Origin: a virus
Length of the DNA: 20,218 nucleotides
Strand: one strand, 5' to 3'
Virus record (IMG/VR): IMGVR_UViG_3300030102_000830
Location: 1 to 20,218 of that record
Shown here: piece after piece, positions 4,520 to 12,841 of the stretch
Layout of the letters: every line of letters starts with the position of its first letter
Position numbering within the stretch: the first letter of the stretch is position 1
The notes under the pieces: model-generated
Told to the model about the DNA's origin: nothing
Database searches by the model: none
Seen by the model: only the letters and a program-made list of their open reading frames with translations
Program-made: the position numbers and the translations under genes

Positions 4520-4671
4520 CCCACTATTTGAAGGTTATGTTGTTCGTAAAAACGAAAGGAAGGTTGCCCTTCTACTATATAGGGAAAAAGACTACAAGAA
4601 ACCCTTAGTAAAGTCTTATAAATGCTTGTAAGTGTTGATATTGTTGATAAAGATTTTTTTTTGAGGACTAC
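4520..4671 (-). promoter_or_regulatory. Leader region of the terminase-head operon with two small hairpins
   Basis: About 150 bases with no gene separate the 4672-4693 terminator from the small-terminase start. On the minus strand this leader can form a hairpin with a GNRA tetraloop, GAAGG-GCAA-CCTTC (4572-4559), followed by a second, TTCGT-TTTT-ACGAA (4556-4543), both close to the poorly initiated GTG start. A near-repeat GACTACAARAAACCC occurs at 4590-4604 and again at 4666-4680, where it overlaps the terminator's T-run and stem. No convincing sigma70 -35/-10 pair is visible; TATAGT at 4577-4582 is a candidate -10 without a good -35. The operon may therefore use a phage-directed late promoter or read-through of the terminator. 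Confidence 0.4.
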
Positions 4672-4693
4672 AAAAAACCCCTCGATTGAGGGG
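4672..4693 (-). terminator. Rho-independent terminator after the 74-aa gene
   Basis: On the minus strand a perfect 6-bp GC-rich stem, CCCCTC-AATC-GAGGGG (4693-4678), is followed directly by six T residues (4677-4672). It lies 37 bases beyond the stop codon of the 74-aa gene and closes a monocistronic unit before the terminase operon. The plus-strand side has only CTTTC after the stem, so termination should act mainly on leftward transcripts. Confidence 0.9.
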
Positions 4694-4729
4694 CTTTCTG
4701 CACTTAACTGATATTAAGAGGTATTACAA

Positions 4730-4954
4730 TTATATTGAAGCAAATTCTAAGGCATCTTCTAAAGATTCAAACTTTCTAATAAATTGTTTATTAGTTGTTT
4801 CATCGATTAGAAAGAACTCTTTATTACTTAATTTGTGTATCATAACATTCTCATCTAATCTATTAGTGCCTTGAATAGCTTTAAACCAAACATTATTAGC
4901 ATCATGTTCTCCAACTACTGAATCTGCTAAAAATATATCTTTTTTAAATTCCAT
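4730..4954 (-). CDS. Hypothetical 74-aa protein, own transcription unit
   Basis: I do not recognise this small acidic protein. It appears to be a compact alpha/beta fold with the pattern HKLSNKEFFLIDETTNKQF (about residues 40-58) and a final acidic helix ending in LEDALEFASI. It has no signal peptide or membrane segment. The ATG at 4954 has an excellent ribosome-binding site (AAGGAG, 8 bases upstream). It stands alone: its own consensus promoter (5136-5164), a leader of about 175 bases with a long stem, and its own terminator (4672-4693). This isolation, between the sigma-like gene and the terminase operon, suggests separately timed or strongly expressed production, perhaps of a regulator or host-takeover factor; function is not shown. 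Confidence 0.8.
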   Translation of the reverse strand: MEFKKDIFLADSVVGEHDANNVWFKAIQGTNRLDENVMIHKLSNKEFFLIDETTNKQFIRKFESLEDALEFASI

Positions 4955-5132
4955 TTTAATCTCCTTTATTTAATTAACACTTAGAAGTTCAATACACCCA
5001 CTTTTGAATAAAGGCTTAATTACAAGAGATGCTTCAAATGATTCGTCTTATTTTACTGAATCTCTACACTTAGTGAAAGAAGCATTGAACTTCTAAATAT
5101 CTAATTTTTAAATAACTTTGTTTAATTAACAC
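4955..5132 (-). promoter_or_regulatory. Long structured 5' leader of the 74-aa gene (candidate cis-regulatory RNA)
   Basis: The transcript from the 5136-5164 promoter carries about 175 untranslated bases. It begins with GTGTTAATTAAA (5132-5121) and ends, just before the ribosome-binding site, with a second copy of GTGTTAATTAAA (4980-4969). Between them are arms TTAGAAGTTCAATGC (5096-5082) and GTATTGAACTTCTAA (4995-4981), which form a 15-bp stem: 13 Watson-Crick pairs, one G-U and one C-G. The 86-base loop contains further pairings: AGAGAT (5065-5060) with ATCTCT (5030-5025), and ATGCTTC (5085-5079) with GAAGCAT (5035-5029). The latter competes with the top of the main stem, so two mutually exclusive folds are possible. 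No known riboswitch class is recognised. Confidence 0.55.
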
Positions 5133-5135
5133 TAT

Positions 5136-5164
5136 AGTATATGGAGTTCTAAAACCAATGTCAA
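5136..5164 (-). promoter_or_regulatory. Sigma70-type promoter of the 74-aa gene
   Basis: On the minus strand a perfect -35 TTGACA (5164-5159), a 17-base spacer and a -10 TATACT (5141-5136). The expected start of transcription falls about 6-8 bases further on, within GTGTTAATTAAA (5132-5121), the same downstream element seen at the two origin-region promoters. The promoter overlaps nothing coding and lies just after the sigma-like gene's stop at 5178. Confidence 0.85.
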
Positions 5165-5177
5165 GAACTTTCGGTAA

Positions 5178-5480
5178 TTATTTTCTACGAAGTAAATGCT
5201 TAATTATGGTGGCTTGTTTTTGTAGTTTTTTGATGGCTCTATTATAGTAAGTCTTACAAGCCGATTCTGATATTCTCATGTTGAATGCTATGTCTGCAAA
5301 AGGTTTCTTATATATACTTCTGTCATAGAAGCATTGATACTCTTGGTCAGTTAATTCTCTACCTGCTACTACTCCAGTAAGTACATATTTTAGTTCTTCA
5401 AGCATTTTTGCTTGTTCTTGTTCTACTTCATCTATTAGGTCCTGATAACTTTTTGCTGTGTTTTCGATATTGTTTTTCAA
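5178..5480 (-). CDS. Sigma-70 region 4-like helix-turn-helix protein
   Basis: A 100-aa protein. After a coiled, acidic N-terminal helix (about residues 10-38), residues 43-88 follow the sigma-70 region 4 pattern: LTDQEYQCFYDRSIYKKPFADIAFNMRISESACKTYYNRAIKKL (split here only for reading), with the two HTH helices at about 59-67 and 70-83. It contains no region 2, so it is not a complete sigma factor. Small region-4-like proteins in phages often act as late-gene or packaging-gene regulators. The start is a TTG at 5480 in a TTGA overlap with the upstream methyltransferase, supported by AAGGAG seven bases before it; the first internal ATG would remove 25 residues. It is the last gene of the early operon, just before the head genes, so a role as the early-to-late switch is an attractive inference. 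Confidence 0.7.
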   Translation of the reverse strand: MKNNIENTAKSYQDLIDEVEQEQAKMLEELKYVLTGVVAGRELTDQEYQCFYDRSIYKKPFADIAFNMRISESACKTYYNRAIKKLQKQATIIKHLLRRK

Positions 5481-12426: not shown

Positions 12427-12471
12427 TTGCACTTTATTATTTATTGTAGTAATATAAGGTATGTTAATTAA
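12427..12471 (+). promoter_or_regulatory. Rightward promoter of the single plus-strand gene
   Basis: On the plus strand: -35 TTGCAC (12427-12432), a 17-base spacer, -10 TAATAT (12450-12455), five bases, then ATGTTAATTAAA (12461-12472) at the expected transcription start. The -35 is weaker than those of the two leftward promoters. The same start element is used, which suggests coordinated control. Confidence 0.8.
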
Positions 12472-12487
12472 ATTAAAGGAGATTACA

Positions 12488-12841
12488 ATGAACTTAAACG
12501 AATTAAAAAACAAACTTACTGAAGCAAATATTACTACATTCAACACAGAAAATGGTTTTGATGTAGACATTAACAGCAAAAAGAAATTCTTAAATCTTAT
12601 TGCTAAATTAGGTAATCATAACTACATGACATTAAATTCTAATGGAATATCATATTTCACAGAATCAAGCTATCATTCACAAGATAGATACCCAATGAAT
12701 TGTTCAACTCATCTTATGATTAAAACAGTACAACAAATTAATGTATATGGCTATCCATTAGATAGTTCAGTATTAATTGAAGTATGTGCTATGGATAAAG
12801 ATGGTAAATACAATGAAATTAGTTTTTACTTAAACAAATAA
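12488..12841 (+). CDS. Hypothetical protein, only plus-strand gene (117 aa)
   Basis: I do not recognise this 117-aa protein. I chose ATG 12488 (MNLNELKNKLTEANITTF...) with AAAGGAG seven bases upstream; an in-frame ATG at 12461 falls in the transcription-start element and is rejected. The sequence looks like a mixed alpha/beta domain with many Asn, Ser and Tyr residues and no HTH, signal or membrane segment. It is transcribed from the origin against all other genes and ends at a terminator shared with the tail operon. A divergent single gene beside the origin is the usual place for a regulator, but there is no visible DNA-binding motif. Its N-terminus resembles that of the first leftward early protein. 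Confidence 0.8.
   Translation: MNLNELKNKLTEANITTFNTENGFDVDINSKKKFLNLIAKLGNHNYMTLNSNGISYFTESSYHSQDRYPMNCSTHLMIKTVQQINVYGYPLDSSVLIEVCAMDKDGKYNEISFYLNK

What the first reader, a model, noticed from the sequence alone, without database searches (positions are those of the whole stretch)
4955..5132. Structured leader with mutually exclusive folds before a lone 74-aa gene
Between a strong promoter and a strong ribosome-binding site lie about 175 untranslated bases bounded by two GTGTTAATTAAA copies. A 15-bp stem (5082-5096 with 4981-4995) closes an 86-base loop with inner pairings, one of which (5079-5085 with 5029-5035) competes with the stem. Such a switch-like layout in a phage so compact elsewhere implies a regulatory RNA, or a stable RNA that is itself the product. 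I recognise no known class.
Basis: partly seen in the sequence, partly recalled or inferred. Interest (0 to 1): 0.72.

Follow-up and report, generated by a model that had tools for sequence, protein, structure and literature searches.

The report
Noncoding RNA cassette in phage accessory slot
In an uncultured phage, an extra 152-base piece that folds back on itself sits between the promoter and ribosome-binding site of a small gene; relatives carry the same gene without it, while other relatives carry longer noncoding RNAs with the same start at the same spot, so it looks like an interchangeable RNA module rather than a built-in switch of that gene.

Summary
The promoter, ribosome-binding site, two GTGTTAATTAAA copies and long stem are real. 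The stem is 20 bp (5101-5082 with 4995-4976) and occurs in 0 of 1000 shuffles. The "switch" is not supported: the competing helix has about 0.1% pairing probability and touches four stem pairs, and the loop folds no better than chance (z +0.4).

A relative (L004) has the same gene and promoter in the same place with RBS+ATG directly behind a single GTGTTAATTAAA, so the leader is an insert, not part of the gene. Of 83 promoter-plus-motif cassettes in about 160 relatives, 77 carry an ORF at the motif. Only the window and three relatives (L072, L029, L050) are noncoding. These four share the tag AAAGTTATTTAAAAATT, followed at once by a closing helix whose sequence differs but whose pairing is kept (36/36 cells, 5 of 9 pairs changed on both sides).

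Best reading: a short noncoding-RNA "moron" fused to a protein cassette, having lost the terminator and second promoter that separate the two in relatives. No Rfam match. Its function is unknown, and most of the insert's interior has no detectable homologue.

The parts
5136..5164 (-). promoter, -35 TTGACA 5164-5159, -10 TATACT 5141-5136
   Evidence: 11/12 consensus, 17-nt spacer; near-identical promoters head the cassettes of relatives
5121..5132 (-). first initiator motif GTGTTAATTAAA; transcription start expected near 5130
   Evidence: start position inferred from the -10
5103..5119 (-). noncoding-cassette tag AAAGTTATTTAAAAATT
   Evidence: shared with L072, L029, L050 noncoding cassettes and no coding cassette
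5082..5101 (-). 5' arm of the 20-bp closing helix
4996..5081 (-). 86-nt loop; no more structured than chance; contains block CTTCTTTCACTAAGTGTAGAGA shared with L072
4976..4995 (-). 3' arm of the closing helix; runs 5 nt into the second motif
4969..4980 (-). second motif GTGTTAATTAAA, read as the start of the protein cassette whose own promoter is missing
   Evidence: comparison with L004, L029, L072
4961..4967 (-). Shine-Dalgarno AAAGGAG
4730..4954 (-). 74-aa protein gene of the protein cassette, no known family
4670..4694 (-). terminator of the slot, GCCCCTCAATCGAGGGGTTTTTT
   Evidence: sequence; present in L006 even when the slot is empty

Best explanation
The region is a short noncoding-RNA cassette (an 'RNA moron') in a phage accessory slot, fused end to end with a protein cassette. 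Shown from sequence: the slot upstream of the DUF5681 and terminase genes takes exchangeable cassettes that start with a strong sigma-70-type promoter and the motif GTGTTAATTAAA; protein cassettes continue with RBS+ATG, noncoding ones continue with the tag AAAGTTATTTAAAAATT and a long-range helix that closes the RNA into a domain. In relatives the noncoding cassette ends at its own terminator and a second promoter starts the protein cassette behind it. In the window that terminator and second promoter are missing, so the RNA runs into the second GTGTTAATTAAA and one promoter must serve both. Inferred: transcription starts near 5130, the closed domain forms at the 5' end of a joint transcript, the SD stays open so the 74-aa protein is still made, and the domain may be cut free by RNase III in the helix or RNase E in the AU-rich motif. 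Its effect is probably in trans (on host or rival phage), as expected of cargo in such a slot; no target is shown.
For: Empty site in L004 with the same gene and promoter; 83 cassettes, 75 with an ORF 13-28 nt behind the motif and 2 with the ORF starting in it, only four phages noncoding; those four share the tag (90% over 30 nt with L072, E 7.5e-5; 18/18 with L029); closing helix starts directly behind the tag in all four (0/300, 0/300, 0.037, 0.08 of shuffles) with 36/36 cells paired, 5 of 9 pairs changed on both sides, covariation 0.96 against 0.37 shuffled and at most 0.31 slid; internal block shared with L072 (1/500 shuffles); noncoding cassettes of relatives have own terminator and a following protein cassette.
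Against: The body of the insert has no homologue beyond the first ~30 nt and one 22-nt block. Only four sequences, aligned around helices I had already found. The loop is not more structured than chance, nor are the interiors of the L072 and L029 RNAs. The window copy lacks a terminator, so it may be a decayed remnant. No expression data.
Confidence: 0.55

Rival explanations
1. Cis-regulatory leader: the structured 5' UTR controls translation or stability of the 74-aa mRNA (switch, thermosensor or protective 5' stem).
For: It lies between promoter and SD with no terminator in between, so it must be transcribed as a leader; the helix ends just upstream of the SD.
Against: The same gene has no leader in L004 and L003; SD mostly unpaired, competing helix negligible; no leader terminator; no Rfam class.
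Confidence: 0.2
2. Scar or decayed cassette: a noncoding cassette lost its 3' half, terminator and the next promoter by deletion, and what remains has no function.
For: Missing terminator and second promoter relative to L072 and L029; loop not structured beyond chance; insert found in one contig only.
Against: A 20-bp stem with 13 perfect Watson-Crick pairs in a row would be expected to decay if useless.
Confidence: 0.15
3. Small mobile DNA element (MITE-like) with terminal inverted repeats and a 12-bp target duplication (GTGTTAATTAAA).
For: Inverted repeat inside a 12-bp direct repeat, precise empty site in L004.
Against: The left repeat is not at the edge: about 20 nt lie outside it and match the tag of noncoding cassettes; the doubled motif is explained by two cassettes in tandem; no second copy in the window or in viral contigs.
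Confidence: 0.06
4. Assembly chimera joined at the 12-bp repeat.
For: Single uncultured contig; no second sequence with the same insert.
Against: 12 bases is well below usual assembly word lengths (general knowledge); tag and helix match independent contigs.
Confidence: 0.03

Closest known systems
Phage morons, including the anti-sRNA genes at the PR' moron site of lambdoid prophages (Tree et al. 2014, PMC4104026)
   Same: Accessory transcription units inserted at a fixed site of the phage genome, with proteins and small RNAs both occurring there.
   Different: Those RNAs are 51-60 nt, Hfq-bound, lie beside protein morons and have known targets; here RNAs are about 140 to 620 nt, share a tag and closing helix, and no target or expression is known.
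GOLLD and ROOL RNAs (PMC12286853)
   Same: Large noncoding RNAs of phages, without known function; the L029/L050 RNAs are of similar size and have a conserved 3' region with a variable 5' part, as GOLLD has.
   Different: No match to any Rfam model, which include these families, even at relaxed thresholds; no tRNAs in the window; the window's RNA is much smaller.
Riboswitch or attenuator leaders
   Same: Position between promoter and SD.
   Different: No competing fold of similar energy, no leader terminator, not conserved with the gene.
RNA anti-CRISPRs, Racrs (PMC10651486, abstract only)
   Same: Small noncoding RNAs carried by phages as accessory cargo.
   Different: Racrs mimic a CRISPR repeat; no CRISPR-repeat family matches the insert above chance.

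Membership tests
Phage moron cassette | Own promoter | tested here: met
   11/12 sigma-70 consensus directly upstream
Phage moron cassette | Own terminator | tested here: not met
   No terminator between insert and the second motif; present only in relatives' noncoding cassettes and after the 74-aa gene. The insert plus gene together meet the feature; the RNA part alone does not.
Phage moron cassette | Present or absent between otherwise collinear relatives | tested here: met
   L006 and L008 empty, L004 protein cassette only, others different cassettes
Noncoding-cassette group described here | Tag directly behind the motif | tested here: met
Noncoding-cassette group described here | Closing helix starting directly behind the tag | tested here: met
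Noncoding-cassette group described here | Discrete stable transcript | not testable with these tools
   needs RNA-seq or Northern blot
Any Rfam family (GOLLD, ROOL, riboswitches and others) | Match to the family's covariance model | tested here: not met
   No match at gathering score for the window; relaxed searches give only sub-threshold chance matches
Switch-type leader | Two mutually exclusive folds of similar stability | tested here: not met
   Alternative pairing probability 0.001, about 5 kcal/mol worse; ligand or protein effects not testable here
MITE-like element | Inverted repeats at the element's ends and copies elsewhere | tested here: not met
   About 20 nt outside the left arm match the noncoding tag; no other copy found

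The most novel reading that the evidence does not exclude
These phages carry an undescribed set of interchangeable RNA effectors: one shared 5' module (motif, tag, closing helix) presents unrelated RNA bodies of roughly 90 to 600 nt, swapped in the same slot as protein cargo; the window holds the smallest member, doubling as an mRNA leader.
Probability: 0.25. Interest if true: 0.8.

Novelty: new variant of a known kind. Interest (0 to 1): 0.5.

Why it matters
Accessory genes of phages are nearly always catalogued as proteins. A slot in which protein cassettes and noncoding-RNA cassettes exchange behind the same promoter gives a simple search rule (promoter plus motif with no RBS and ATG) for finding RNA cargo that gene callers miss, and makes the function of such RNAs testable.

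Tried and rejected
Rfam at gathering and relaxed thresholds for window and relatives: nothing. Exact 18-mer of the stem in IMG/VR: nothing. Insert against named phages: only E 0.4 hits in T4 gene 52 and a reverse transcriptase gene, chance. Motif+tag in GTDB genomes: nothing. Looser motif+tag pattern in IMG/VR: the known noncoding cassettes plus unrelated matches. Two further apparently ORF-less cassettes (L093, L119) encode ORFs that start inside the motif. Covariation over the whole L029/L050 RNA: 10 pairs changed on both sides against a shuffled mean of 6.8 (maximum 16), not significant, although the joint fold energy is below all 50 shuffles (-76; shuffled mean -50, lowest -63). AlphaFold of the 74-aa protein: pLDDT 58, no fold match at E <= 0.001. 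Host: listed named-phage terminase hits are below 40% identity and no relative was found in GTDB genomes, so the host is unknown. The idea that TTAATTAAA versus TTAGTTAAA marks a phage-specific operator was dropped: contig 3300026183_000027 has TTAATTAAA in one slot (L062) and TTAGTTAAA in the other (L102).

Full report
Observation. On the minus strand the promoter TTGACA-17-TATACT (5164-5136), the first GTGTTAATTAAA (5132-5121), a second copy (4980-4969), the SD AAAGGAG (4967-4961) and the 74-aa gene (4954-4730) are as described. The leader folds at -36.9 kcal/mol, z -3.1. The competing helix has probability 0.001; forcing it costs about 5 kcal/mol and removes only four inner pairs. The 86-base loop alone folds no better than shuffles (z +0.41). 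The strong signal is one long inverted repeat, not a switch.

The leader is an insert. A relative, L004, has the same gene (68% identity) in the same place behind TTGACA...TATATTATAGTGTTAATTAAATAAAGGAGATTAAAATG, with no leader. L003 has a 99% identical protein in another slot of its genome (next to the gene that borders the 117-aa gene 12488-12841 in the window), also without leader. In L006 and L008 (98% terminase identity) the slot is empty; the upstream gene runs straight to the terminator.

The slot takes cassettes. In about 160 relatives fetched with the terminase and a 761-aa protein I found 83 distinct promoter+TTARTTAA cassettes. In 75 an ORF with RBS starts 13-16 nt (71 cases) or 27-28 nt (4 cases) behind the motif; two more (L093, L119) start their ORF inside the motif. 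The cassette ORFs fall into 48 families. The remaining six sites, in four phages, are noncoding: the window, L029 and L050 (two tandem promoters each; L051 carries the same RNA as L050) and L072. The tag AAAGTTATTTAAAAATT stands behind the motif in all four and in none of the coding cassettes. The L072 RNA is about 260 nt with its terminator, those of L029 and L050 about 630 nt; each ends at a CCCCCTGAAAYATGGGGGTTTTTT terminator and is followed by a protein cassette with its own promoter. The L072 and L029 stretches hold no sense ORF above 42 aa.

The window insert belongs with them. Its first 30 nt match L072 at 90%, E 7.5e-5 in a database of the relatives, and 18 of 18 nt match L029. Directly behind the tag each RNA starts a long-range helix: 20 pairs in the window, 14 in L072 (0/300 shuffles each), 12 in L029 and 11 in L050 (0.037 and 0.08). 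On the ungapped alignment of tag and arms all 36 cells form standard pairs, 5 of 9 pairs are changed on both sides, and the covariation score is 0.96 against 0.37 in shuffles and at most 0.31 when the partner is slid. With four sequences, two of them close, and with arms chosen for having the helix, this is support, not proof. A second block, CTTCTTTCACT-AAGTGTAGAGA, is shared with L072 (1 of 500 shuffles, one of three comparisons). The rest of the insert has no homologue in IMG/VR, named phages or GTDB genomes at the sensitivities used, and no RNA here matches Rfam.

Parsing the window. Read against L072 and L029, the window is [promoter - motif - tag - closed RNA] joined to [motif - RBS - ORF - slot terminator], with the RNA's terminator and the second promoter missing. 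This explains the doubled motif without a target duplication. One promoter must now serve both parts. In the predicted fold the outermost helix (5115-5109 with 4972-4966) ends at the first base of the SD stretch, which stays mostly unpaired, so translation is expected.

Mechanism. Shown by sequence: insert, slot, cassette architecture, shared tag and helix. Inferred: a joint transcript from about 5130, formation of the closed domain, possible release by RNase III or RNase E, and a role in trans. A precedent for small RNAs at moron sites is the anti-sRNA group of lambdoid prophages (PMC4104026); large phage RNAs of unknown function are GOLLD and ROOL (PMC12286853), which these do not match.

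Verdict. The switch reading is not supported; the RNA-product reading is favoured, with a decayed remnant and a plain cis leader as live rivals. The finding gains its interest from the relatives rather than from the window's own leader.

Noticed in passing
L029:3506-4120 and L050:2695-3311 (L051 identical): Two-promoter noncoding cassettes of about 620 nt, conserved in the first 57 and last 250 nt with a variable middle, no Rfam match; candidate large phage RNA.
   Followed up: partly
L072:3790-4052: Noncoding cassette of about 260 nt with closing helix and terminator, fold z -2.5, no Rfam match.
   Followed up: partly
L003:3001-3225 versus window 4730-4954: The 74-aa protein, 99% identical, sits in a different genomic slot in another phage: cassettes move between slots.
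   Followed up: partly
L012:3918, L024:4065, L050:3341, L119:5223: Four protein cassettes carry a small hairpin (GCCGAAAGGC) between the motif and the SD, giving 27-28 nt spacing instead of 13-16.
   Followed up: no
window 5078-5094 (-): AGAAG-TTCAATG-CTTCT resembles a tRNA T-arm (5-bp stem, TTCRANN loop); 0.9% of shuffles have one. It would compete with the long stem while the RNA is being made.
   Followed up: partly
window 12427-12500 (+): In the second slot the motif reads ATGTTAATTAAA, itself an ATG in frame with the 117-aa gene, so the start codon is ambiguous.
   Followed up: no
window 5178-5480 (-): 100-aa protein with a weak sigma-70 region 4 match directly upstream of the slot; might act on the uniform cassette promoters.
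   Followed up: no
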